Positions 15,715 through 61,768 of a stretch of 64,000 nt of DNA are shown here, piece after piece; the stretch's first letter is position 1, and every line of letters starts with the position of its first letter. Source of the DNA: Persephonella hydrogeniphila. GTDB lineage: Bacteria; Aquificota; Aquificia; Aquificales; Hydrogenothermaceae. The stretch lies in the NCBI RefSeq assembly GCF_900215515.1, contig NZ_OBEI01000001.1:434001-498000 (forward strand), in the 5' to 3' direction. Made by a program: the position numbers and the translations under genes. Under the pieces are notes generated by a model that did no database searches, was not told the origin of the DNA, and was given only the letters and a program-made list of their open reading frames with translations.

Positions 15715-17232
15715 CTATCTGAGAAGCTGTAGTACAAGCTGTGGAAGCTGATTTGCCTGAGCAAGCATTGCCATACCAGACTGCATAAGTGTTTGTTGTT
15801 TTGTGAAGTTTGCCATCTCTTTAGCAAAGTCTACGTTTCTGATACGTGATTCAGCTTCCCTTGTTTGAACTGCACTGAACTCGTTATTTTGAATAATTGT
15901 TTCAAGGTTTATTTGTATAGAACCAAGGTCTGCTCTCATTTTATCAACTTTCTTGATTATAGCGTTTATCAGTTTCATTGTGTATTCTGCATTTTCGTTT
16001 GTATCGACTTTTGCGTTTGCTCTGAGACTTTCATGTGTCGCTGTTCCTGTTGCCGCAATACCAAGACCTCCTGTAGGAGAAGATACTCCTGTAAAGTCGT
16101 AGGCAAAAGATTCTGCACTGAGTACTGTCAGGTCACCTACTTTAACAGCTGAGCCTGTGTTACCTCCCGATACCGAACCTGATGCATCTTCAATAAGCGT
16201 CCCTAAATCAATTGTTGTTCCTGAACCTGCTGTAACTTCTAATGCTATTGTTTCTCCTTCCGTTTCTAAAACAAGCTTTCCACCTTCATCTTTAGCTACA
16301 AGATTAAGGTTGTTTTCTTTCGCTTTTGTGTTTATATCATCGATAAGCTGTGTAAGTGATAAGGATGTTCCAGAAGCATATGTCAGTGTAAAGTCTGCTG
16401 TAGTCTCAGGCCCAACGTATACATCAATTGTAAGACCACCTGTTCCTATAGATACCGTGGAGAAGGCAGTACCAGCAACACTTTTGTTTGTTGCTGAAGC
16501 TTCTATTCCTTTTGCCTGCAGGTCTGCATTTTTGTTTATAGCATCTGCGAGAGTCTTAGCATCTATCATCTGTCCAGATGTAAATGCAGCACTTAAATCA
16601 ACTCCCTGAACTGTAATTGTGTCACTTGCACTGTTATATTCAAAATCAGTAGCAGTTATCAAACTTGACAGTGTTTTTGTAGCATCGCTTGTTGACTGTC
16701 CATCTCCTTTTACGGCATAAGCACCTAAATCTGCAGCTGTTGCACTATCAATAGATATAGAAAGTTTCTGATCAGCTCTCGGTCCGTAATGAATGTACTG
16801 GTTCTTGAAATCTCCATTCAGAAGTTTTTTTCCGTTAAACTCTGTAGCTTTTGCGATTCTGTCTATAGCATCAATAAGCTGATTTATATCTCCCTGTAGA
16901 GCTTTCCTGTTAAGAGAAGCGTTAGTATCGTTAGCTGCTTGCTCTGCTTTTGTGTAGATAGTAACGAGCTTGTCGTAAATCTGTGCAAGTGATGTTTCGG
17001 CTATCTGCGCTGCAGATATTCCGTCCTGTGAGTTTCTAACACCTTGATCAAGTGCGCTTGCAACCAGATTCAACTGGTCTGCGATAAACAGTCCTGCTGC
17101 ATCATCTTTGGCAGAGTTAATTCTGTAACCTGTCTCTAATCTTTCAAGGGATGTGTTCAGATTTCTTTCTGTTTTCAGGATGTTTACATGTCCGAACTCC
17201 GCCTGAAAGTTATAGTTAATTCTCAGTGCCAT
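15715..17232 (-). CDS. fliC: Flagellin FliC
   Basis: Major filament protein, 505 residues. The N-terminal D0/D1 block (MALRINYNFQAEFGHVNILK, then LERLETGYRINSAKDDAAGL, FIADQL and NSQDGISAAQIAE) and the C-terminal block (AESRIRNVDFAKEMANFTKQ, then QSGMAMLAQANQLPQLVLQL) are canonical. The central region (about 190-390) is rich in Ser, Thr, Ala and Gly, offering many hydroxyl acceptor sites. The pseudaminate-type operon and Maf glycosyltransferase directly upstream imply O-glycosylation. The ribosome site GGAGGT (17241-17246) pairs with part of the sigma-28 promoter sequence. Confidence 0.96.
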   Translation of the reverse strand: MALRINYNFQAEFGHVNILKTERNLNTSLERLETGYRINSAKDDAAGLFIADQLNLVASALDQGVRNSQDGISAAQIAETSLAQIYDKLVTIYTKAEQAANDTNASLNRKALQGDINQLIDAIDRIAKATEFNGKKLLNGDFKNQYIHYGPRADQKLSISIDSATAADLGAYAVKGDGQSTSDATKTLSSLITATDFEYNSASDTITVQGVDLSAAFTSGQMIDAKTLADAINKNADLQAKGIEASATNKSVAGTAFSTVSIGTGGLTIDVYVGPETTADFTLTYASGTSLSLTQLIDDINTKAKENNLNLVAKDEGGKLVLETEGETIALEVTAGSGTTIDLGTLIEDASGSVSGGNTGSAVKVGDLTVLSAESFAYDFTGVSSPTGGLGIAATGTATHESLRANAKVDTNENAEYTMKLINAIIKKVDKMRADLGSIQINLETIIQNNEFSAVQTREAESRIRNVDFAKEMANFTKQQTLMQSGMAMLAQANQLPQLVLQLLR

Positions 17233-17240
17233 GACTAAGT

Positions 17241-17280
17241 ACCTCCGATTTTGTTTTTGTTGAGTTTTATTATCGGAGGT
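17241..17280 (-). promoter_or_regulatory. Inverted repeat that can sequester the fliC ribosome binding site
   Basis: Perfect 9-bp arms: ACCTCCGAT (minus strand, 17280-17272) overlaps the sigma-28 -10 box, and ATCGGAGGT (17249-17241) includes the Shine-Dalgarno. The loop is 22 nt. RNA starting at the sigma-28 promoter lacks the first arm; RNA reading through from the upstream glycosylation operon contains both. Confidence 0.6.
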
Positions 17281-17296
17281 GAAAAATAATTTTTTA
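17270..17296 (-). promoter_or_regulatory. Sigma-28 (FliA) promoter of fliC
   Basis: Minus-strand TAAAAAAT (17289-17296), exactly 11 nt, then TCCGATAA (17270-17277). The -10 matches 7 of 8 positions of GCCGATAA. The predicted start, near 17263, gives a leader of about 30 nt that contains the ribosome binding site. Confidence 0.85.
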
Positions 17297-17298
17297 GG

Positions 17299-19152
17299 TT
17301 AATTAATAATTTCTTCCGGAATGGCTTTAATATTGGACAGGATAGAAATTATATAATCTTTGTAATCTCTAATTATTTCCTTTTTGTCTTTTTCTGAAGC
17401 AAGTTTAAGTATCTTAATAATAGTCTGGATTTTGGAGAACTCCTCCTGATTAAACAGTATATCCGTAAGATAATCGAGATAAACTCCCCAGAATGCAAAC
17501 TCTTCAAGTATATGTATTACTTTTTCTGGAGAATTTTCTTCTCTTATAAGACTAATAGTTTTTTCTATTTTAGGTAAGACTTCTGTTTTTATTCTTCCTA
17601 TTTCTGAATTCTGCATATGAACATCTATCTTTTCAAAGTTCCCCCTTATTTTTTTGATTATACTTTTTTTGTCAAGTTTTCTAGGGAGTATACTGCTTAT
17701 AGCTGACTTTTTTAGAGTTATACTTCCTTCTATTTTTGCTCCATCAGAGAAGTTGTATACCTTTAGATCCTTTACATATTCCTTCCCTTTCCTTATCTGC
17801 TCCTCGAAAATCTTTTTTGAGATATAGTAATCCTTCCGTGAGTAAACAACTCCTCCATAGTTACCCTCTACTTCTATTGTAGCCTCGCTTAGAGTTTTTA
17901 AATCACCTTCCTTATCTGTATACCCTTCTGTGTGAAATCTATCTCTGTATTTTGTACCTAAATCTACTCCAAATAATAAAAATCTGTTCGCTTTTATGTT
18001 TAAAAGCAGGGAAAATAAAGTATTCAGTACTGTTGCTCCGTTTTCCACCTCAACTTTTATCTGGTCTTTTATATTAAGCAGATTTTTGAACATCCCGTAA
18101 TGGAAGATTAAAGTTTCTTTAAATTTTTCATTAAACTCTGGATCTGTAAAAATAGGAGCAAAGATATATATCTTTTTCAGCATATCTTCGTCCAGATTAC
18201 TTATAAATCTGACCATATTCTTCTGTGCATCCGCTATAACTGTAAAGTCTGGGATTATTCCATTCTTGACAAGTGTTCTGGTTGCTGTGGTCAAAGATAT
18301 GATTACCGCTTTATCCTGTATCTTTTTCAATATTTCTATATCTTGATCGAGAGAGGGACCTGAGCCAACTATAACAAATGGTGTTTTGTTTTTTTCGAAA
18401 AGGTTTTTCGTTTTTATGCTCAGTAAATACCTATTATTTTTTCTTTTTATATTTTCTTTAAAGAACTTGACCCGATTATATGCAGCTTCATAGGGTATTG
18501 TGACAGTTTTCATCTCATAAATGTGCTTCATATACGCTTCTAACTGCTTTATATGGTTGTCTTCATAAGATTTTAGGTAAGAAACAAAAGAAAACATCGA
18601 AAAGTACAGAAGCATATGCTTATTTAGTGTTTCCTGATTTATAGAAAAAGTCAGGTTTATCTTAGACTCTCTGGCAAGTTTATCTAAATCAACAGATAAC
18701 AGAAACAGATAAACAAGCTCTAAATGAGGTTCGTAAATTATCACCTGTTTTAAGTTCGGGAAAAATTTAGCCTTATTTTCTAAAAGTTCTTTTATATGGA
18801 AAAATGGAAGTGTCCCGAAAACAATAAGACCTTCAGTGTGATAAATAAGTTTCTCTTTAGGAGGATTTAGATTGTCTGCATATGCTATAAGTTCTTGAGG
18901 AAAATTTACTTTCATTATATGAGTCCATATTACACCTATGGCTTTTTCTCTTTCTTCTATCTTTTTTTTTGCCTTTTCTACAATGTTTTCTATCCTGTTT
19001 CCGTGAAAAATAATATCAAAATCTTCTTTTTTCAGGATTATCTCAAGATTTTTTTCAATATCAGGCAGCTTTTGGAGAAGTTTATTTAGAATGTTTGGGC
19101 TTATCTTCTGTAGAAGTTCCAAATTTTTGCGCAGATATTCTTTGTTCAACAT
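17299..19152 (-). CDS. Motility-associated factor (Maf/DUF115) flagellin glycosyltransferase
   Basis: The 617-residue protein has the Maf/DUF115 core: FVIVGSGPSLDQDIEILKKI near residue 265, AVIISLTTATRTLVKNGIIPDFTVIADAQ, and a later FLLFGVDLGTKYRDRFHTEG block. Maf proteins transfer CMP-activated nonulosonic acids (pseudaminic or legionaminic) to Ser/Thr of flagellin in the cytoplasm before export; the family fold resembles MptE-like pyrophosphokinase and sialyltransferases. Its ATG overlaps the pseI stop (TAATG on the minus strand). It is the last gene of the ten-gene operon and lies 66 nt from fliC, its probable acceptor. Confidence 0.9.
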   Translation of the reverse strand: MLNKEYLRKNLELLQKISPNILNKLLQKLPDIEKNLEIILKKEDFDIIFHGNRIENIVEKAKKKIEEREKAIGVIWTHIMKVNFPQELIAYADNLNPPKEKLIYHTEGLIVFGTLPFFHIKELLENKAKFFPNLKQVIIYEPHLELVYLFLLSVDLDKLARESKINLTFSINQETLNKHMLLYFSMFSFVSYLKSYEDNHIKQLEAYMKHIYEMKTVTIPYEAAYNRVKFFKENIKRKNNRYLLSIKTKNLFEKNKTPFVIVGSGPSLDQDIEILKKIQDKAVIISLTTATRTLVKNGIIPDFTVIADAQKNMVRFISNLDEDMLKKIYIFAPIFTDPEFNEKFKETLIFHYGMFKNLLNIKDQIKVEVENGATVLNTLFSLLLNIKANRFLLFGVDLGTKYRDRFHTEGYTDKEGDLKTLSEATIEVEGNYGGVVYSRKDYYISKKIFEEQIRKGKEYVKDLKVYNFSDGAKIEGSITLKKSAISSILPRKLDKKSIIKKIRGNFEKIDVHMQNSEIGRIKTEVLPKIEKTISLIREENSPEKVIHILEEFAFWGVYLDYLTDILFNQEEFSKIQTIIKILKLASEKDKKEIIRDYKDYIISILSNIKAIPEEIIN

Positions 19153-20186
19153 TAATCTATTAACTCCCAGCTTAATGGTGTACCTTTCTTTATATCTTTT
19201 CGTGCTCTTTTACCTAAAATTTGAGGTAGATATTTTGGGTGCAGACCATAACCGGGTCTTATAGATCGGACATTTTCTTCTGTAAAAATCTCCCCTTTTT
19301 TAATATCTTTAACTGCAAATAAGGAACGAGATCCTTTTCTTAAATTTTCCAGCTTTTCTGACAACCCGTACGAAACTCTTCCTAAAGCTTTTTCTACATT
19401 CCTGATAGCTTGAACCATCTGCCTAAATTCGTCTTTGTCTAAAGAAAAAAAGCTATCTTCTGTTTTTATTTTTTTATCTAATATAAAATGTTTTTCTATA
19501 ACTCTTGCACCTAAAGCTACTGCAGCTATAGGAACCTCTATCCCAAGTGTGTGATCAGATAAACCTACCTCAACATTAAAAGTTTCTTTCATATTTGGAA
19601 TGGTGTTGAGATTAACCTCCTCTAATGGAGTCGGGTATGCCGATGTGCATTTCAACAAAATTATCTGATCATTACCTGTTCTTTTACATGCCTCAATTGC
19701 TTCCTGTATATCACATAAAGTAGCCACCCCTGTAGATATTATCACCGGCTTTCCTTTGCTTGCTACATATTCTATTAATGGAATATCTGTTATTTCCGGA
19801 GATGCTATTTTGTATGCAGGAATATTTAACTTCTCTAAAAAATCAACAGCTGTTTTATCAAAAGGTGCAGAAAAGAATATAAGATTTAATTTTTCCGCAA
19901 GCTCTTTTAACTCATAATGCCATTCCCAAGGTGTGTATGCTTTTTTATAAAGCTGATATAAAGTTTGTCCATCCCAGTATGTACCGTGTTTTATTTGAAA
20001 GTACTCATTATCACAATCTATAGTTATTGTGTCCGGTGTGTACGTTTGGAGTTTAACAGCGTCAGCACCAGCTTCTTTCATTGCATAGATTGTCTCTTTT
20101 GCTAAGTTTAAATCTTGCTTATGGTTAGCTGACAGCTCCGCAACTATAAAGACTTTTTCTTTTAAATCAAAATCAGCTATTTTCAT
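19152..20186 (-). CDS. pseI: Pseudaminic acid synthase PseI (NeuB family)
   Basis: Condenses 2,4-diacetamido-2,4,6-trideoxy-L-altrose with phosphoenolpyruvate to pseudaminic acid. The 344-residue protein has the NeuB-type TIM barrel (AELSANHKQDLNLAKETI, KLQTYTPDTITI, FFSAPFDKTAVDFLEKL, AYKIASPEI, STGVAT, LKCTSAYPTPLEEVNL, EVGLSDHTLG and ARVIEKHFILDK). It ends in the antifreeze-like SAF domain (AVKDIKKGEIFTEENVRSIRPGYGLHPK). KLQTYTPDT, the LDKxIKTEDSxFS block and the RPGYGLHPK region resemble Campylobacter PseI more closely than sialic acid synthase. The start overlaps the WbqC-like stop by 4 nt. Confidence 0.93.
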   Translation of the reverse strand: MKIADFDLKEKVFIVAELSANHKQDLNLAKETIYAMKEAGADAVKLQTYTPDTITIDCDNEYFQIKHGTYWDGQTLYQLYKKAYTPWEWHYELKELAEKLNLIFFSAPFDKTAVDFLEKLNIPAYKIASPEITDIPLIEYVASKGKPVIISTGVATLCDIQEAIEACKRTGNDQIILLKCTSAYPTPLEEVNLNTIPNMKETFNVEVGLSDHTLGIEVPIAAVALGARVIEKHFILDKKIKTEDSFFSLDKDEFRQMVQAIRNVEKALGRVSYGLSEKLENLRKGSRSLFAVKDIKKGEIFTEENVRSIRPGYGLHPKYLPQILGKRARKDIKKGTPLSWELID

Positions 20187-20971
20187 TGGTAAAACTCCAT
20201 AAACTTTTTCCTGTAATCAAGACAGTAAATAGGGTTTCTTCTTCCCTTTCTTATTATTTCCAAAGCATCTTTAAAACCCACATTAAAAAGTAAATCAATA
20301 ATTCCCATAAAAGGTAAAAATTTTCCGTAAAGTTGCGTGTATACTGGATGCTCATAATTATGGTAATAAACTTTTATATTGTTTTTTTCTAATTCTCCCC
20401 CCGGATACTCTTTTTCTATGTAAGATGCAGAACCTTGAGGAGATATATAGATGTTACAGTTTATATGCTTGCATATATTTGCCAGTCTATTATCTTTCTT
20501 GCCAGTTATATTCTTTATATGTGAACTTCGCATCGTTTTAGTGGCTATACCTATACTGTCTTTTATTTTTTCTATGAAATTTATATTAAAATCACCTAAA
20601 TATTTAAAGGGCGACTCTATCAATTCGCGAATAAAACTGAAAACCTCATTAAAATAAGGAGCTTTTTTATAGTTTAGTTCTATAGCCCTTAAATGTTTTT
20701 TTCTCCAATCGGTGGTATCATCTATAACGGCATCTTTTATAAGGGTTTTTCGAGAATCTTTTACTTTTTTTACAGGGATAGTCAAAAATAATTCCCCTTT
20801 ATCTGTTTTTATTCTGTTTCTTACTTGCCAGCTTCTTTTTACTAACTGGACATCATCTAAGTAAACAAAAATGTCTACACTATCTATCAGATCAAAATAT
20901 CCAAGCCAAGGATTATAAGTCGGCTGCATTATTGCACATTTAAGTATATTCTTTTCGTTCTCTGACAGCAT
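20183..20971 (-). CDS. WbqC-family protein
   Basis: The 262-residue protein has the WbqC signature IMQPTYNPWLGYFDLIDSVDIFVYLDDVQ near its start, then KRSWQVRNRIKTDKGELFLTIPVKK and a C-terminal YLSPQGSASYI-like block (YISPQGSASYIEKEY). WbqC-like proteins occur in O-antigen and flagellar glycan loci. Their reaction is not established; some are annotated as putative sugar-modifying (acyl- or aminoacyl-transferring) enzymes. The start overlaps the beta-propeller gene by 32 nt with a fair GAAGG ribosome site. The location between pseI and pseG-type genes points to decoration of the nonulosonate. Confidence 0.82.
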   Translation of the reverse strand: MLSENEKNILKCAIMQPTYNPWLGYFDLIDSVDIFVYLDDVQLVKRSWQVRNRIKTDKGELFLTIPVKKVKDSRKTLIKDAVIDDTTDWRKKHLRAIELNYKKAPYFNEVFSFIRELIESPFKYLGDFNINFIEKIKDSIGIATKTMRSSHIKNITGKKDNRLANICKHINCNIYISPQGSASYIEKEYPGGELEKNNIKVYYHNYEHPVYTQLYGKFLPFMGIIDLLFNVGFKDALEIIRKGRRNPIYCLDYRKKFMEFYQ

Positions 20972-21848
20972 ACCCTATACCTTCTTTTCCATAGGAATTA
21001 CCATTGTACAGCATAAACTCAAAGTACTTATTCTTTATTATTACTGAATAAGCCTGCATCTCTGCATCCCAATTTGAACGGGGAGGAGAGTAGTGGTGAT
21101 TATTAATTCTTTTCCATCTCACGCCATCATCTGACTCTGCATAACCTATCTGGTAATTTTCACCAGTTTTTTTATAAGAAAATAACATCTTGTACTTTCC
21201 ATCTTTCCAGACAAAGGGTCTTGCAAGTGCATTCTCATCTTTTTCTAAAGGGATAGCCACTTTACCTGTTTGAAACCAGTTTACTCCATCTTTAGATTCT
21301 GCATATTTGATATCATACTGTGGTAAGTCTGGATTTATCCATCTAATTCCTGATACATACCACATTCTAAATTGTTCTCCTTCCTTCATAACAAATGGAG
21401 CAGTAAGTATAGAAATAGGTTCATTATCATTTCTGCTTAAAATTGGAACTTTTTTAATTCTCTTAAATAAATACTCTGACTCTTTTACCGCCAATCCCGG
21501 CATTAACTCCATCCTAACACTTGAGCGAGGACGCCATCCTATATAATACAAATAAGTAACATTTTCAGTTTTAAGTATACAGGCAGGTGTTACCCCAGAA
21601 TCATCAAAACATCCTAAATCTCCTGGCTTTAATACAGGTTCTTTACTGTATTCGAGAACAGTAATTTTGTCATTGTTTAGTTCAATTACAGCAAATCCTA
21701 TATAGGATCTGTTTTCTTTATTTCTTCCGGAAAAGTATATTTTATACAAATTATCTTTTATATGCTCCGGGGTAGGTAACATACTATGGGTTTGCATCCA
21801 CCATATTTTTTTTTGTGGAACAATGATCAATCCTTTATTTACCCACAT
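20940..21848 (-). CDS. Five-bladed beta-propeller (GH43/32-like) protein
   Basis: The 302-residue protein (from the ATG at 21848) has repeated blade motifs of the GH43/GH32/GH68 superfamily: KIYFSGRNKENRSYIGFAVI, YLYYIGWRP, FRMWYVSG, IKYAESKDGVNW, YKMLFSYKK and IGYAESDDGVRWKR, and FEFMLYNGNSYGKEGIGYAV. Such proteins sit in flagellin and LPS glycan clusters with no proven reaction; they may be hydrolases, transferases or phosphorylases on sugar intermediates. An in-frame ATG at 21863 overlaps the upstream stop but lacks a ribosome site, whereas GAGGG precedes the ATG at 21848, so the latter is preferred. Confidence 0.75.
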   Translation of the reverse strand: MWVNKGLIIVPQKKIWWMQTHSMLPTPEHIKDNLYKIYFSGRNKENRSYIGFAVIELNNDKITVLEYSKEPVLKPGDLGCFDDSGVTPACILKTENVTYLYYIGWRPRSSVRMELMPGLAVKESEYLFKRIKKVPILSRNDNEPISILTAPFVMKEGEQFRMWYVSGIRWINPDLPQYDIKYAESKDGVNWFQTGKVAIPLEKDENALARPFVWKDGKYKMLFSYKKTGENYQIGYAESDDGVRWKRINNHHYSPPRSNWDAEMQAYSVIIKNKYFEFMLYNGNSYGKEGIGYAVRERKEYT

Positions 21849-21859
21849 GGTATAAACCC

Positions 21860-22555
21860 TCATAAAGAAAAATACATTTTTTTCAAACGTATAGCCAATT
21901 TATCATCGGACTTAAGAATTTTTGAACTTTCAGTTAAAACAACAGAACCATCTGGAATATCTCTTGTTACCAGAGCACCCATAGTTATAAATACATCATC
22001 GCCAACTTTTATAAAATCTTTTAATGTTGCATTAACTCCTATAAAACATCTTTTACCTATAGTACAGTGCCCTGATACAACAACATGGGAACTTATGTAA
22101 GTATGGTCTCCTATCGAAGAACCATGCCCTATATGGTTACCACTCCACAACACTACATTATTACCAATCTTTACATTATGCTGTATTGTTTGATTCTCTA
22201 AAATAAAACAGTTATCTCCAATTGATACACCTCTTTTTAGATTAACCAGATTAGAAGAAACATAGGATACTAACCTGTAACCCTTATCTTTCATCTCATA
22301 ATATTTTTGTTCTCTTATCCTGTTTAATTTTCTGTAAGATAGGGCTACATGTGCACCATACTCAGTAGGTGGATAGTATTTTTCAATCTGACTAAATTTT
22401 ATCAGGGGCAATCCTAAGAAGTTATCACTATCAATGAATTCATCATCAGCTACAAAAGCAACTACTTCATAGGGACTATCATCTGTAAAGTAGTAATAAG
22501 CTAATTCTGCAATTTCTCCCGTTCCGAATATAACAATTTTGTCAGTATTTTGCAT
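21860..22555 (-). CDS. PglD/NeuD-like left-handed beta-helix acyltransferase
   Basis: The 231-residue protein has an N-terminal nucleotide-sugar-binding Rossmann-like part (IVIFGTGEIAELAYYYF). A left-handed parallel beta-helix follows at about 105-205 with hexapeptide repeats (VSIGDNCFILENQTI, VKIGNNVVLWSGNHIGHGSS, and CTIGKRCFIGVNATL). The first H in GNHIGHGSSIGDH is positioned like the catalytic histidine of PglD. It probably transfers an acetyl or other acyl group to an amino-sugar. No GNAT-type PseH is present, so this may supply the 4-N-acylation step between PseC and PseG, which is an inference. It overlaps pseG by 55 nt and has the strong ribosome site AGGAGGAG. Confidence 0.85.
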   Translation of the reverse strand: MQNTDKIVIFGTGEIAELAYYYFTDDSPYEVVAFVADDEFIDSDNFLGLPLIKFSQIEKYYPPTEYGAHVALSYRKLNRIREQKYYEMKDKGYRLVSYVSSNLVNLKRGVSIGDNCFILENQTIQHNVKIGNNVVLWSGNHIGHGSSIGDHTYISSHVVVSGHCTIGKRCFIGVNATLKDFIKVGDDVFITMGALVTRDIPDGSVVLTESSKILKSDDKLAIRLKKMYFSL

Positions 22556-23490
22556 ATTTTTTCTCCTCCTTTTGTTGGTAAATTGTAATTAAATGTTGAA
22601 GATAAGAGCTTTTCTACAGATATAGAAAGTTCTTCTATACTGTCACAGTACTTTAGAGGTAAAAATTTTTCTAATTTCTTGTGGTAGGTTTTAAACCTTT
22701 TATCCTGACTCCACACTATAACTGGAGTGTTCAAAGATAATGCTTCGTACTTTGTTAAACCTGTAGAGGTTATAACAAGTTTTGCTTTTTTTAGAAGATA
22801 TAAAAAATTTTGATACTCCATTAGATTCAGGACATGAATATTTTGATTATGGAACATATCCCTTATTCTTTTATCAGGAGTAATAATTTTATACTCAAAT
22901 TTATTCAGATAGGGATCGGATGTAACGAAATCAAGTAGATTATACATATCTTTAGAATATGATCCTCCCAAAGATATTAAGATAAAATCCTCCTTTTTTA
23001 CTTTTTTTGATTTTAAGGTATTTATGGTATAAGAATAGATAAAGTACTCTTCACCCAGTAAAAATTTATTGCCTAGGGTTGTTATAAATTTTTCTTCTTT
23101 AGCCAAGAAATAAGGGATTATTATCAGATCACTTTTAGTACTGACATTTTTATGAAGACAATCTTCTTTAAAGATCCCATCGATTAGCACAACATTTTTG
23201 TTTGCAATTTTTAGATTGTTTATAATAGAAACAAGATCATATTTACTTTCTTTTATATATAATTCTGTAGAGAGATCAAACAGAACAACATCTAAGTTTT
23301 CAGATAAAATTCTATTTATAAATTCAGTCTGATCTTTGTTTTTATATACGGTTTCATAAAAAAAGTTTGGAAACTCTTTGTAAAATATTCCTGATCTATT
23401 CAGATATTCTGATAGAGCTTTCATTCTGTATTTATGTCCTGTACCTATTTTATAATTGTAATCATACAATAACCCTACTTTTGGTATCAT
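22501..23490 (-). CDS. pseG: PseG-type UDP-sugar hydrolase
   Basis: Predicted to release UDP from UDP-2,4-diacetamido-2,4,6-trideoxy-beta-L-altrose, the step before PseI. The 329-residue GT-B fold protein has the family N-terminal loop GTGHKYRMKALSEYL (residues 17-31), which contains the GxGHxxR motif with the catalytic histidine. It also has VLFDLSTELY, VVLIDGIF, FILISLGGSYSKD at the second domain start, and KKAKLVITSTGLTKYEALSLNTPVIV, the UDP-binding block of MurG/PseG. It is divergent from well-known PseG in several spots, so the exact substrate is uncertain. The start overlaps the spsF-like stop (ATGA). Confidence 0.82.
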   Translation of the reverse strand: MIPKVGLLYDYNYKIGTGHKYRMKALSEYLNRSGIFYKEFPNFFYETVYKNKDQTEFINRILSENLDVVLFDLSTELYIKESKYDLVSIINNLKIANKNVVLIDGIFKEDCLHKNVSTKSDLIIIPYFLAKEEKFITTLGNKFLLGEEYFIYSYTINTLKSKKVKKEDFILISLGGSYSKDMYNLLDFVTSDPYLNKFEYKIITPDKRIRDMFHNQNIHVLNLMEYQNFLYLLKKAKLVITSTGLTKYEALSLNTPVIVWSQDKRFKTYHKKLEKFLPLKYCDSIEELSISVEKLLSSTFNYNLPTKGGEKICKILTKLLYSEREKLQN

Positions 23491-24320
23491 AAATATCTCT
23501 TCACAAAATCTTTTAATTTGCTAAACCCATATACCTCAAGAAGTTTAATAGCTTCTTTAATCTCTTCCTGTAAATTTGAAAATCTTTTTTTCTGTACTTC
23601 ATGTTTGTTTATAAACAAAGGCCACTCTTTTTTGATTAATAAATTTAATGCATCTAATGAAGAAAAGAATTCATTTTTGTAATACAAACTATCAAATATA
23701 TAACAAAGTAAAGCGTAATCATGAATAGTATCAAGAGTTAGCCTGATTTCTGGGTGAAAATAGATTTCAGGTGCTTTATAATCTCCTATTCTAAAAATGT
23801 TTGGGTTATCTCTTATGTAGGTAGTCACATGTTCTTTGTAGTAAGCATCTTCCGCATTTTTGAAACTCTTCTCAAGAGCTTCAAAATTTATTACTTCAAC
23901 TCCCAATCCCAGTGGAAATGGTTTTGTGATAGAGTTTGAGGTATAATCAACTTTAGATTTTAGATGGTATGAGACAGTATTATCTATTATATCCCAATCT
24001 ATACATGGGCAATCTGAAGTTATCCTGATAATTATATCTAATCCATTTTCTTTAGCTGCACGATAATATCTGCTTAAAACATCGTCTCTACTTCCTCTAA
24101 ACCACTTTACTTCTTCTTTTTCTGCTATTTCTGTTATTATTTCATCTTCTTTATCTACAGTAGTGGCGACTATAACTTCATCCAGAGATTTAGACTTTTT
24201 TGTTCTTCTTATTACTTGCTGTAAAACAGTTATATCACTATCATAGGGAAGTTTTCTCAGTACTTTTTGAGGTAATCTTATTGAAGAAGTTCTGGCCTGA
24301 ATAATTGCTCCTATTTTCAT
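23487..24320 (-). CDS. SpsF-like cytidylyltransferase (predicted nonulosonate activation)
   Basis: The 277-residue nucleotidyltransferase starts KIGAIIQARTSSIRLPQKVLRKL, the nucleotide-binding loop of the SpsF/CMP-KDO synthetase superfamily. It continues with EVIVATTVDKEDEIITEIAEKE, WFRGSRDDVLSRYYRAA, IIRITSDCPCID (metal site) and LTLDTIHDY. Canonical PseF proteins are relatives, but COG1861-type SpsF lengths and motifs fit better here. It would activate the sugar with CTP to give CMP-nonulosonate for the Maf transferase. It overlaps pseG by 4 nt. Confidence 0.85.
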   Translation of the reverse strand: MKIGAIIQARTSSIRLPQKVLRKLPYDSDITVLQQVIRRTKKSKSLDEVIVATTVDKEDEIITEIAEKEEVKWFRGSRDDVLSRYYRAAKENGLDIIIRITSDCPCIDWDIIDNTVSYHLKSKVDYTSNSITKPFPLGLGVEVINFEALEKSFKNAEDAYYKEHVTTYIRDNPNIFRIGDYKAPEIYFHPEIRLTLDTIHDYALLCYIFDSLYYKNEFFSSLDALNLLIKKEWPLFINKHEVQKKRFSNLQEEIKEAIKLLEVYGFSKLKDFVKRYL

Positions 24321-24329
24321 TTTTCACTC

Positions 24330-25013
24330 TCATTTAACAGCAAAGACCAAGAAATGATCTATTATCTTGTCTTCATTAAACAGATTTTGAAAAGTTCGAC
24401 CTATTTTTATATCTTTGAAAAAGATCGAAAAATATTTTTTTATTTCGTTTTCATTCTCAAAATAAAAGAACTTTTCTCCATATCTAAAATCATCTTTTCT
24501 CTGCACCAAAAATATATTTTTTGATATATAGTGTCCACCCTTTTTTATTCCGTGCTTTTCTCCAACAGTAGAAAGTATAAGTTTACCCTCAGGTTTTAAA
24601 ACTCTTCTGTATTCATTCAGGGCTTTTTTTAAGTTTTCCTCGTTGTCTTCATAATGTATTACATTCCAGCTGACAATATAATCAAAGAAATTATCAGGAA
24701 ATGGAATATTTGTATTACTCCCGGTACGTAATTTTATGTCGATACCATATTTTGAAAAATGTTTATAAACTTGCTGGCAGATCTCATCCGATATTTCTAC
24801 TCCAAAAATATCCATACCAAGTTCACTATATAAGATAAAATTTTCTCCATTTCCAAATCCTATATCCAATATTTTTTTATTTTTTACAGGCAGTTTACCT
24901 ACATATTCACCTTTGAATATTCTTATTAATTCTTCAGATGGGTATGCTTTTAATTTGTCTACCTCTTTGGTATAAAAATCTGTCCAATCTTTAACAGCTC
25001 TCTCATAGTCCAT
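24330..25013 (-). CDS. SAM-dependent methyltransferase of the nonulosonate operon
   Basis: The 227-residue class I methyltransferase has motif I ILDIGFGNGENFILYSELG near residue 48, NTNIPFPDNFFDYIVSWNVIHY (motifs II/III) and YRRVLKPEGKLILSTVG. It is most like methyltransferase domain 11/25 enzymes that act on small molecules. A TTG at 25025 would extend it by four residues, but GGAG lies six nt before the ATG at 25013, one nt after the pseC stop, so ATG is preferred. An O- or N-methyl group on the flagellar sugar is a plausible product, as methylated pseudaminic acid derivatives are known in Campylobacter. Confidence 0.82.
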   Translation of the reverse strand: MDYERAVKDWTDFYTKEVDKLKAYPSEELIRIFKGEYVGKLPVKNKKILDIGFGNGENFILYSELGMDIFGVEISDEICQQVYKHFSKYGIDIKLRTGSNTNIPFPDNFFDYIVSWNVIHYEDNEENLKKALNEYRRVLKPEGKLILSTVGEKHGIKKGGHYISKNIFLVQRKDDFRYGEKFFYFENENEIKKYFSIFFKDIKIGRTFQNLFNEDKIIDHFLVFAVK

Positions 25014-25014
25014 C

Positions 25015-26165
25015 TTAATCTCCAAATTGTTTAAAAACTTTTTTTACTACATACTCAATATCTTTATTACTCATAGCCGGATAAATCGGCAAGCTTATTT
25101 CTCTTTTATAAAAATCCTCTGCTTCAGGACAAATTCCTTTTCTGTATCCTAATTTCTCATAGTAAGGATGCCAATAAACAGGTATATAATGAACCTGAAC
25201 TCCTATTCCTAATTTCCTTAAATTATCGAAAATTTTCTCCTTTATTTTTAGATATTTATCTTTTAGTCTTATAGGATAGAGATGGTAAGAATGTGATGCG
25301 TACTCTTTTTCTACTGGAATATCAAAAAAAGGGTTATCTCTGAAAGCTTCATTGTATAACTGTGCTATCTCTCTCCTCCTTTCTACAAATCTATCTAATT
25401 TTTTCAGTTGAGAAATTCCAAGAGCTGCCTGTATATCTGTCATTCTGTAGTTGTAACCTAAGAACTGCATCTCGTAGTACCACTCTCCTTCCTGTTTGTG
25501 AACAAACCTCCCTTTATCTTTCGTTATGCCATGGTTTCTGAACATCAAGAGTTTTTCGTATACATCTTGATCGTTTGTCAAAACTGCTCCACCTTCTCCT
25601 GTTGTTATGTGTTTAACAGGATGGAAACTAAACACCGTCACATCAGAATATCTGCAACTTCCTATTTTCTCATTTTCATATTTTGCCCCTAAGGCATGAC
25701 AGGCATCTTCAACTACTTTCAGGTTATATTTATCTGCGATTTTTTTTACATTTTTCATATCCACAGGATGTCCAGCATAATGGACTACAGATATAGCTTT
25801 TGTGTTTTTTGTTGTCTTTTCTTCAATTTTAGAAACATCTATATTACCTGTTTCTAACTCAATATCTACGAAAATAGGCTTTGCTCCAAGATACAATCCC
25901 GCATTTGAAGTAGCTGCAAATGTGATAGGAGTTGTAATAAACTCATCACCCTTGGTTAGCCCAATTGAAAAATACGCCCCGTGAAGAGCAGATGTTCCGC
26001 TATTAAAAACGACGGCATACTTTGCACCACAATAATCTGCCAATTTTCTCTCAAACTCTGATATCTTAGGACCCTGAGTTATATAATCAGATTTTAAGAC
26101 TTTGATTACAGCTTTTATATCTTCTTCATCTATGAACTGTCTTCCGTAAGGAATGTGGATTTCCA

Positions 26166-26166
<1 letters not shown>
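25015..26166 (-). CDS. pseC: PseC-type UDP-4-keto-sugar aminotransferase
   Basis: PLP-dependent DegT/DnrJ/EryC1 family aminotransferase that places the 4-amino group on UDP-4-keto-6-deoxy-L-AltNAc. Key elements are GRQFIDEEDIKAVIKVLKSDYITQGP, FNSGTSALHGAY, VHYAGHPVD, VEDACHALGAKY and FSFHPVKHITTGEGGAV with the Schiff-base lysine. The C-terminal Y..HPYYEKLGY block is shared with PseC. The length is 383 residues from the ATG at 26166, which shares a base with the pseB stop (TGATG). AGGTGG lies 7 nt upstream; the TTG at 26169 is less likely. Confidence 0.92.
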
Positions 26167-27203
<1,037 letters not shown>

Positions 27204-59003: not shown

Positions 59004-59070
59004 AATCACCTCTCAACCTTATCTTTTGTGGTTTATAATAATATCACAATATTTATCTGGAGGATTAGTG

Positions 59071-60909
59071 TTGAAAAAGGAGTACAACTTTAAAGAAATA
59101 GAAGAGAAACTTTTAGAAGAGTGGGAAAAGTCTGATATTTTTAAAACAGAAGAAGATACAAATAAAGAAAAATTTTATGTGTTGGAGATGTTTCCGTATC
59201 CTTCAGGCAGAATACATATGGGACACGTAAGAAACTACGCTATAGGAGATGTTGTAAACAGATACCTTAAGATGAAAGGGAAAAATACACTTCATCCTAT
59301 GGGATGGGATGCTTTTGGAATGCCTGCAGAAAACGCAGCGATAAAAAGTGGAGTTCATCCGGCAAAATGGACTTACGAAAATATAGACCATATGAAAAAA
59401 GAGCTTAAAAGGTTAGGTTTTTCTTACGATTGGGATAGAGAAGTAACCACATGTGATCCTGAGTACTACAGATGGAACCAGTGGATATTCCTTAAAATGT
59501 ATGAAAAAGGAGTGGCTTACAGAAAATCTGCAGTTGTTAACTGGTGCCCCCATGATATGACAGTTCTTGCAAATGAACAGGTGATAGAAGGAAAATGCTG
59601 GAGATGTGATACTCCTGTGGTTCAGAAAGAAATACCATCATGGTTTCTCAGAATAACAGATTATGCAGAAGTTCTTCTTGATGATCTTGAACAGCTTAAG
59701 GGAAAGTGGCCTGAAGCTGTTATAACGATGCAAAAAAACTGGATAGGAAAATCTACAGGAGCAACAATAAAATTTCCTGTTGAAGATTCCACAGCAACAA
59801 TAGAAGTTTTTACAACAAGACCAGACACAGTTTACGGTGTTACATTTATGGCACTGGCTCCTGAACATCCTATGGCTGTAGAACTTGCTAAAGGAACAGA
59901 TCAGGAAGAAGAAGTACTAAGATTTGTTGAAAAATATCTCAGTATGTCTACACGGGAAAGAAGTATAGTAGAAGAAAAAGAGGGTGTATTTACAGGAAGA
60001 TACGCAGTTAATCCGGTAAATGGAGAAAAAATACCTATATGGATAGCAAACTACATATTATGGGGATACGGTACAGGAGCAATAATGGCCGTTCCCGCAC
60101 ACGATGAAAGAGATCACCAGTTTGCAAAAAAATACGGTCTTCCTATAAAGCCTGTTATAAAACCTTTAGAAGGAGAATGGGATTTTGAGGAAAAAGCCTA
60201 TGAGGAAGATGGAATAATGATAAATTCAGATGGCTTTGATGGTATGAACTCATCTGAAGCCAGAGAAAAAATAACACAGATGATAGAAGAAAAAGGTTTT
60301 GGAGAAAAAACTGTAAATTTCAGATTAAGGGACTGGAATATCTCAAGACAGAGATACTGGGGAACACCTATTCCTATAATATACTGTGATGAGTGTGGAA
60401 CAGTTCCTGTACCGGAAAAAGATCTACCTGTTGTTTTACCGGAAAATGTTGAGTTTACAGGTATGGGAAATCCACTTCAGAGTGTTGAAGAGTTTGTCAA
60501 TACAGAATGTCCAAGATGTGGAAAGCCTGCCAGAAGAGAAACAGATACAATGGATACATTTATAGACAGCTCATGGTATTTTCTGAGGTACTGCGATCCC
60601 CACAATGACAAAGCCCCCTTTGATAAAGAAAAAGCAGACTACTGGATGCCTGTTGATCTGTATATAGGAGGGATAGAACATGCTGTTCTGCACCTTCTGT
60701 ACTCAAGATTTTTTACAAAATTTCTCAGAGAAATAGGTCTTGTGGATATTGAAGAACCTTTCAGTAAACTTCTTACACAGGGAATGGTGCTGAAAAAATG
60801 GATAAAAATAGAAAAACTGTTAGAAATCTTAGGAGTTGATGAAAATATTACAGTTGAAGAGCTAAAAGAAAAGATAAAAAAATTATCAAAAGAGGGAAAA
60901 GATGAATAA
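59071..60909 (+). CDS. leuS: Leucyl-tRNA synthetase alpha subunit (split enzyme)
   Basis: N-terminal part of a two-subunit LeuRS, 612 residues. It carries the class I HIGH motif as HMGH ([19 protein letters not shown]), the zinc domain ([21 protein letters not shown]), and the CP1 editing domain ([36 protein letters not shown]). It also has [20 protein letters not shown], and [17 protein letters not shown] and [18 protein letters not shown] of the catalytic core. The KMSKS loop is absent and lies in beta. Start: GGAGG at 59059-59063 favours the TTG at 59071 (a GTG at 59068 is possible). It ends with a helical tail ([15 protein letters not shown]) not found in single-chain LeuRS. It overlaps beta by 8 nt. 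Confidence 0.95.
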
Positions 60910-61768
60910 AACCCTAAAGGAATTTTTAGAAGAGAACCATCTTACAGTTAATGATAACGCAAAACTTCTTTTTGAGAAATTAGATCTTGATACAGATATA
61001 CTCAAAGAGCTTGAAGAAAAGTACGGAAAGTCTGACAAAATGTCAAAATCAAAACACAACACTGTAGATCCTGATGAGATGATAGAAAAGTACGGTGCAG
61101 ATACAGTCAGACTTTATATACTGTTTGCAGCTCCACCTCAGAATAGCTTTGACTGGGTAGACAGTGGGATAGAAGGAGCACACAGGTTTTTGAAGAGGGT
61201 ATGGAATTTCGTAATAGACAAGGCAGAAGATATAAAGAATGTGAGGTATACAAAAGAAGATTTTAAAAATCTGAATGAAGAAGACCAGAAATTAAGGAGA
61301 AAACTCCATCAAACAATTAAAAAAGTTAATGACGATATTAACAGAGAATACCAGTTCAACACTGCTATAGCGGCGATAATGGAGTTCTTTAACGAACTTT
61401 CTTCGTATAAAGGAAACAACCTTAAGCTTATCAAAGAGAGTATAGAAAATATGGTACTTCTGTTATCACCATTTACTCCATTTATAGCAGATACTCTGTG
61501 GAGAGAAATAGGAAATGAAGGCTTTACCATCAATCAGCCATTTCCAGAACCAGATGAAGAAGCTTTAATAGAAAAAACAAAAGAGATACCTGTACAGGTA
61601 AACGGTAAAGTAAGAGCCAAAATAACTGTTCCTTCAGATGCAGATGAAGAAACCGTCAAAAAATTAGCATTTGAGAATGAAAATGTCAAAAGATGGACAG
61701 AAGGTAAAGATATTGTTAAAGTTATTTTTATAAAAGGGAAGATACTGAATATAGTAGTAAAGGGGTAA
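60902..61768 (+). CDS. leuS: Leucyl-tRNA synthetase beta subunit (split enzyme)
   Basis: C-terminal part of the heterodimeric LeuRS, 288 residues, close to the length of the A. aeolicus beta subunit. After a 45-residue N-terminal extension, the catalytic loop appears as [53 protein letters not shown]. The anticodon-binding helical domain follows ([31 protein letters not shown], then [18 protein letters not shown]). The C-terminal domain ends with [20 protein letters not shown]. The ATG start is within the alpha gene and the two are translated by coupling. Both subunits are needed for activity. Confidence 0.95.

What the first reader, a model, noticed from the sequence alone, without database searches (positions are those of the whole stretch)
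17241..17296. Flagellin promoter element doubles as an anti-ribosome-site arm: read-through mRNA may be silenced
The sigma-28 promoter of fliC (TAAAAAAT-N11-TCCGATAA) contains ACCTCCGAT, a perfect 9-bp complement of ATCGGAGGT, which holds the fliC Shine-Dalgarno. RNA started at the sigma-28 promoter begins after the first arm and leaves the site free. RNA reading through from the ten-gene glycosylation operon, which ends 66 nt upstream without an obvious terminator, would fold the site into a hairpin. The arrangement could ensure that flagellin is made only when sigma-28 is active, although the sugar genes are transcribed constantly. The complementarity and promoter match are seen directly; the regulatory logic is inference.
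Basis: partly seen in the sequence, partly recalled or inferred. Interest (0 to 1): 0.75.

Follow-up and report, generated by a model that had tools for sequence, protein, structure and literature searches.

The report
Flagellin promoter hides an anti-ribosome-site arm
In a heat-loving bacterium and many distant relatives, the start signal for the flagellin gene also encodes a short sequence that should fold over and block the gene's ribosome-binding site, but only in RNA copied through from the upstream gene, so flagellin is probably made only from its own promoter.

Summary
A near-consensus sigma-28 promoter (TAAA-N15-TCCGATAA, 17296-17270, minus strand) carries ACCTCCGAT (17280-17272), a perfect 9-bp complement of ATCGGAGGT (17249-17241), which holds the fliC Shine-Dalgarno (SD). 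The predicted sigma-28 start lies in the loop. In a read-through RNA the SD is predicted about 99% paired even at 70 C; in the sigma-28 RNA it is mostly free.

In this genome alone the stem is only unusual (chance about 0.7% per gene). The weight comes from about 100 other flagellin promoters. Complementarity between promoter spacer and SD region exceeds species-swapped pairings in Hydrogenothermaceae, Desulfurobacteriaceae and a Campylobacterota group, with many compensatory changes (covariation 0.266 vs 0.153+-0.015 shuffled). Arms shift register between families. Stems are stronger where the upstream gene points the same way (genus means p=0.006) and not above chance in Aquificaceae.

Read-through silencing, as for phage T4 lysozyme, is the best reading. 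It is unmeasured, and two facts fit poorly: five divergently arranged Persephonella keep the arm, and Sulfurihydrogenibium-like genomes lack it. pcrA and dnaN show the same layout at sigma-70-like promoters. New variant of a known kind.

The parts
15715..17232 (-). fliC (flagellin, 505 aa), the gene whose SD is sequestered; only flagellin in the genome
   Evidence: Flagellin_N and Flagellin_C in Pfam; one match in the own genome
17241..17249 (-). right arm ATCGGAGGT, contains the fliC Shine-Dalgarno GGAGG
   Evidence: sequence; folded to the left arm in the read-through RNA
17250..17271 (-). 22-nt loop AATAAAACTCAACAAAAACAAA; the sigma-28 transcript is expected to start inside it (about 17265-17262)
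   Evidence: position relative to the -10; start inferred, not mapped
17272..17280 (-). left (anti-SD) arm ACCTCCGAT, overlapping the last 3 spacer bases and the first 6 bases of the -10
   Evidence: perfect 9-bp complement of the right arm; covariation in relatives
17270..17277 (-). sigma-28 -10 element TCCGATAA
   Evidence: near-consensus; the TAAA-N14/15-NCCGATAA form recurs in nearly all of 92 flagellin promoters
17293..17296 (-). sigma-28 -35 element TAAA, 15 nt from the -10
17299..19152 (-). upstream co-directional gene (motility accessory factor, MptE-like, 617 aa), likely source of read-through RNA; its stop codon lies 18 nt before the left arm
   Evidence: PF01973; no terminator-like site before fliC
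17299..27158 (-). ten-gene run of sugar/flagellin-glycosylation genes ending just before fliC
   Evidence: ORF lists; Pfam for three of them

Best explanation
The sigma-28 promoter of fliC carries an anti-Shine-Dalgarno arm placed just upstream of its own start point. RNA started at sigma-28 lacks the arm and presents a free SD. RNA arriving from the upstream gene contains the arm and folds into a hairpin that hides the SD, so flagellin is not translated from it. Flagellin synthesis would thus stay tied to sigma-28, which in known systems becomes active when the hook is complete, although no terminator separates fliC from its co-directional neighbour. Shown: the arms, their predicted folding, conservation and covariation, and the association with gene orientation. 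Inferred: the start point, the existence of read-through RNA and the translational silencing.
For: Exact arms and promoter. SD unpaired probability at 70 C 0.01 in read-through RNA against 0.6-0.8 in sigma-28 RNA. Left arm against own versus swapped right arm: Hydrogenothermaceae p=0.002, Desulfurobacteriaceae p=0.0004, Campylobacterota group n=17 p=0.0002; one sequence per genus (Hydrogenothermaceae + Desulfurobacteriaceae) mean z=-3.9, median p=0.0005; the region upstream of -35 gives no signal and a reversed left arm no significant one there. Fixed-register count on 38 promoters: covariation 0.266 vs 0.153+-0.015 shuffled, 0/500, every slid register lower, 6 pairs with changes on both sides. 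Register shifts between families, so neither the -10 nor the SD motif alone explains the complementarity. Stems stronger with a co-directional upstream gene (genus means p=0.006; Aquificaceae p=0.0003). No csrA in 41 Hydrogenothermaceae genomes. Exact precedent: T4 gene e (PMC3014915).
Against: No RNA or protein data. Five Persephonella with fliC divergent from sulfide:quinone reductase and no same-strand gene in between keep a 7-9 bp arm, somewhat weaker. Sulfurihydrogenibium-like genomes (g9) have a co-directional neighbour and no arm; L087 likewise. Within Persephonella the arms hardly vary, so there is no covariation there (p=0.43); with one sequence per genus Hydrogenothermaceae alone is not significant (p=0.2). 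In the own genome a stem this strong has about 0.7% chance per gene. RNAalifold gave no consensus structure on the 38-sequence alignment, in which many pairs are broken.
Confidence: 0.7

Rival explanations
1. Translational coupling: the hairpin hides the SD until a ribosome finishing the upstream gene opens it, so flagellin on the long RNA is translated in step with the upstream gene rather than silenced.
For: In Desulfurobacteriaceae the promoter and left arm often lie inside the upstream ORF and its stop codon falls between the arms, so ribosomes would pass through the left arm. Such hairpins seem to exist here: L159:7449 has its upstream stop codon between 10-bp arms.
Against: In the window the stop codon is 18 nt before the left arm, by estimate beyond the front edge of a terminating ribosome. 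The arms are kept whether the stop lies before, inside or after the left arm, while the sigma-28 start is always placed in the loop.
Confidence: 0.12
2. By-product: the -10 element supplies CCGAT and the SD supplies GGAGG, and the remaining matches are chance or inherited; no function in RNA.
For: Chance of such a stem is about 0.7% per gene; arms nearly invariant within Persephonella; kept where no upstream same-strand gene exists.
Against: Own pairings beat species-swapped ones in three lineages and covariation extends outside both motifs. Other sigma-28-like matches in the same genome lack the CC.
Confidence: 0.1
3. A DNA-level inverted repeat bound by a repressor or activator of fliC.
For: A 9-bp inverted repeat overlapping the -10 would be a natural operator.
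Against: Arm sequences differ strongly between species while complementarity is kept, registers shift, and the right arm always contains the SD; a protein site would conserve sequence.
Confidence: 0.04
4. A second promoter further upstream gives a structured fliC leader that acts as a thermometer or other riboswitch-like control.
For: Divergent Persephonella keep the arm behind a 200-400 nt intergenic region that could hold another promoter.
Against: Sigma-70-like matches there are no more frequent than in shuffled sequence overall; the stem is predicted stable up to 75 C.
Confidence: 0.04

Closest known systems
Phage T4 late genes e, soc, 49 and I-TevI (start-site-dependent RBS sequestration; PMC3014915)
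   Same: Long RNA from upstream promoters hides the RBS in a hairpin; a stage-specific sigma promoter overlaps the 5' strand of the hairpin, so its own RNA lacks that strand and is translated; arms recur in related phages.
   Different: Here a chromosomal flagellin gene and a host sigma-28; shared by several cellular lineages; the effect is not measured (about 100-fold for T4 lysozyme).
IS10/Tn10 and IS50 transposase protection from outside promoters (from memory; not found in the paper library)
   Same: An inverted repeat around the element's own promoter hides the SD only in read-through RNA.
   Different: Protects against random insertion next to promoters; here the neighbour is a fixed gene. 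A DDE transposase in this same genome shows the same layout (L180:14851, 12 bp).
E. coli pyrC start-site switching (from memory)
   Same: Start point decides whether a hairpin hides the SD of a cellular gene.
   Different: Start sites a few bases apart at one promoter, set by nucleotide pools; no read-through.
CsrA-FliW control of flagellin mRNA (Bacillus, Campylobacter; PMC4894983)
   Same: Post-transcriptional control at the flagellin SD.
   Different: Needs CsrA, which was not found in any of 41 Hydrogenothermaceae genomes.

Membership tests
T4 gene e-type start-site-dependent RBS sequestration | Hairpin in the long RNA sequesters the SD | tested here: met
   Predicted only: SD unpaired 0.00 at 37 C and 0.01 at 70 C in read-through RNA
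T4 gene e-type start-site-dependent RBS sequestration | Own promoter placed so that its RNA lacks the 5' strand of the hairpin | tested here: met
   Left arm overlaps the sigma-28 -10, so any start downstream of the -10 excludes it; start itself not mapped
T4 gene e-type start-site-dependent RBS sequestration | Arms kept in relatives through compensatory change | tested here: met
   (0/500 shuffles); not in Aquificaceae
T4 gene e-type start-site-dependent RBS sequestration | Read-through RNA exists and is poorly translated | not testable with these tools
   No RNA or protein data; only indirect support from gene orientation
Sigma-28 (FliA) class promoter | TAAA-N15-GCCGATAA upstream of a late flagellar gene | tested here: met
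   TAAA-N15-TCCGATAA before fliC
CsrA-FliW control | csrA gene present | tested here: not met
   0 of 41 genomes, positive controls found
Intrinsic terminator | Stem followed by a T run | tested here: not met
   Right arm followed by ACTTAGTCATG; none found by scan
RNA thermometer | SD-masking stem in the normal transcript that melts near growth temperature | tested here: not met
   Left arm absent from the predicted sigma-28 RNA; stem predicted stable at 75 C

The most novel reading that the evidence does not exclude
Anti-SD arms embedded in promoters are a general chromosomal device in these bacteria, used at sigma-28 and sigma-70-type promoters (fliC, pcrA, dnaN), that makes a gene deaf to transcription from its neighbour: a bacterial class of long, deliberately untranslated mRNA isoforms that insulates genes without terminators.
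Probability: 0.3. Interest if true: 0.75.

Novelty: new variant of a known kind. Interest (0 to 1): 0.6.

Why it matters
Flagellin is costly and, in known systems, should not be made before the hook is finished; sigma-28 control would fail if read-through RNA from a co-directional neighbour were translated. A promoter that also encodes its own read-through silencer would solve this without a terminator or a protein, in lineages some of which lack CsrA. The layout gives a simple sequence signature (anti-SD just upstream of the start point) with which to search genomes for translationally insulated genes, and it implies that RNA abundance overstates expression for such genes.

Tried and rejected
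CsrA-FliW: csrA absent in the family. Terminator: no T run. Genome-wide search for SD-masking stems: the raw excess over shuffles mostly disappears with gene-swapped controls (score >=22: 10 vs 6.4+-2.2; >=26: 4 vs 1.07+-0.8). Two of its top hits have other explanations: L163 is a pair of divergent SDs, L159 has a stop codon between the arms. Upstream promoters in divergent Persephonella: not above shuffles overall. RNAalifold on the 38 sequences: no consensus. Within-Persephonella covariation: none. The other sigma-28-like matches are mostly not recognisable promoters, so they are a weak control for the CC. The upstream-gene calls are mechanical (longest ORF); one (L003) was corrected by eye.

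Full report
WHAT IS THERE. On the minus strand, fliC (17232-15715, flagellin by Pfam; the only flagellin of the genome) is preceded by a near-perfect sigma-28 promoter: TAAA (17296-17293), 15 nt, TCCGATAA (17277-17270). The -10 and the three bases before it contain ACCTCCGAT (17280-17272), an exact complement of ATCGGAGGT (17249-17241), which holds the SD. The stop codon of the upstream gene is 66 nt before the ATG and 2 nt before the -35; no terminator-like site lies between. The upstream gene is MptE-like/motility accessory factor, the last of ten co-directional sugar genes. Four matches of the named MAG collection share contig lengths with genomes of genus g1 and are titled Persephonella, so the window is from Persephonella or a very near relative.

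FOLDING. The stem dominates the read-through RNA (z -4.1 to -4.6). With longer context and at 70 C the SD is unpaired with probability 0.01 in read-through RNA, against about 0.6-0.8 in RNA starting after the -10, depending on the fragment folded. At 37 C the sigma-28 RNA is itself partly structured around the SD (unpaired 0.2-0.4), so the contrast is clearest at high temperature.

IS IT CHANCE? In 850 kb of this genome, stems as strong as fliC's arise in roughly 0.7% of genes when upstream regions are swapped between genes. One genome therefore gives only modest evidence.

RELATIVES. I collected 92 distinct flagellin upstream regions from Hydrogenothermaceae (f1), Aquificaceae (f2), Desulfurobacteriaceae (f5), two small groups and Campylobacterota MAGs, and later extended the Campylobacterota set to 17. 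Nearly all have TAAA-N14/15-NCCGATAA. The duplex energy of spacer plus -10 with the region from the start to the ATG was compared with the same after exchanging arms between species: f1 p=0.002, f5 p=0.0004, Campylobacterota p=0.0002, f2 p=0.20. With one sequence per genus, f1+f5 gives mean z -3.9 (median p 0.0005), f5 alone p about 0.01, f1 alone p about 0.2. Arms taken from upstream of the -35 give nothing; a reversed left arm gives nothing significant in f1, f5 or Campylobacterota, but p=0.007 in f2, a warning that the test is not perfectly calibrated.

COVARIATION. The arms change together, in places outside both the -10 and the SD: L221 TTTTTGCCTCC/GGAGGCAGAAA, L224 TTTTTGTCTCC/GGAGGCAAAAA, L226 TTTGAACTTCC/GGAGGTTCAAA, L227 TTCGAACCTCC/GGAGGTCCGAA, L223 TTCTAACC(A)TCC/GGAGGTTAGAA, L060 GGCCTACCTCC/GGAGGTAGGCC, L139 CCTTCTTCTTCC/GGAAGAAGGAGG, L127 AACCTCCT/AGGAGGTT. 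Counted in a fixed register on 38 sequences (Campylobacterota, f5 and genus g2; f5 and g2 were chosen because they use this register): covariation 0.266 against 0.153+-0.015, 44 doubly changed cells against 22.6+-4.0, no shuffle as high, all slid registers lower. These shuffles do not keep relatedness, so 0/500 is not a probability. Persephonella itself uses the other side of the SD (GAT with ATC) and varies too little to covary.

GENE ORDER. Read-through needs a co-directional neighbour. Genus means of stem energy are stronger with a co-directional than with an opposite-strand upstream gene (19 vs 8 means, p=0.006); the same holds inside Aquificaceae (p=0.0003, not corrected for relatedness) and inside Persephonella (p=0.017), but not for f1 as a whole (p=0.77). 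The two Campylobacterota loci with an opposite-strand gene are weak (-4.6 and -9.0). Exceptions go both ways: five Persephonella with fliC divergent from sulfide:quinone reductase keep 7-9 bp arms, while Sulfurihydrogenibium-like g9 has a co-directional gene and no arm. In the PcrA tree the divergent arrangement is scattered, including G027/G028 very near co-directional G018, so recent exchange of the locus may explain the retained arms; this is inference.

MECHANISM. Best supported: read-through silencing with release by sigma-28 initiation, as established for T4 lysozyme, where long transcripts fold and are translated about 100-fold less and late-promoter transcripts lack the 5' strand (PMC3014915). 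Translational coupling is the main rival, above all in Desulfurobacteriaceae, where the upstream stop falls between the arms. In the window the stop is 18 nt before the left arm, too far, by estimate, for a terminating ribosome to open it. CsrA control is excluded in this family by absence of csrA.

BEYOND fliC. In the same genome the strongest SD-masking stems include a DDE transposase (12 bp, L180:14851), pcrA/uvrD (10 bp, L151:8637) and dnaN (10 bp, L155:3805), each with a -10-like box directly or shortly after the left arm. At pcrA three relatives keep the layout with a changed arm (TCTCCTCCGG-TATAAT...CCGGAGGAGA becomes ACTCCCTCCGG-TATAAT...CTGGAGGGAGT in L188). dnaN keeps a full or near-full arm in four Persephonella and a shorter one in a fifth. 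This is suggestive, not statistically tested.

NOVELTY. Full-text searches found no report of such an arm at flagellin promoters; the library misses most subscription journals. The mechanism is of a known kind; the setting (cellular flagellin, sigma-28, three lineages in two phyla as grouped here) appears new.

Noticed in passing
L151:6550-8637 (-) (G000:C1:166553-168637), and L188, L189, L192: pcrA/uvrD has a 10-bp anti-SD arm abutting TATAAT, so its own RNA would lack the arm; relatives keep the pairing with compensatory changes.
   Followed up: partly
L155:2711-3805 (-) (G000:C1:322714-323805), and L248, L250, L251, L252: dnaN (TTG start) shows the same layout: ACTTCCAGAT, then TGTTAAAAT, then ATCTGGAGGT; variants keep pairing in several Persephonella.
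   Followed up: partly
L180:14851-15744 (+): DDE transposase (DDE_Tnp_1_3) with a 12-bp stem hiding its SD and a -10-like TAAAAT between the arms, like known insertion-sequence protection from outside promoters.
   Followed up: no
L159:7449-8528 (+): 10-bp stem hiding the SD of an unidentified 359-aa protein, with the stop codon of the upstream gene between the arms: a candidate translational-coupling hairpin.
   Followed up: no
window 17299-27158 and 27444; L006-L010: In several Persephonella the ten-gene glycosylation run is absent and fliC lies next to a divergent sulfide:quinone reductase gene like the one at window 27444; the island and flagellin locus seem to be exchanged between close relatives.
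   Followed up: partly
41 Hydrogenothermaceae genomes: No csrA homologue in any of them, so CsrA-FliW control of flagellin is missing in the family.
   Followed up: yes
window 59026-61768: Leucyl-tRNA synthetase is split into two overlapping ORFs; as far as I recall this is known for Aquificales.
   Followed up: no
L009/L048, L272 (G029): G029 hits to fliC, pcrA and dnaN are reported with stops inside the match, which looks like an error-rich assembly; its arm variant (TACTCCGAT/GTCGGAGGT) should be treated with care.
   Followed up: no
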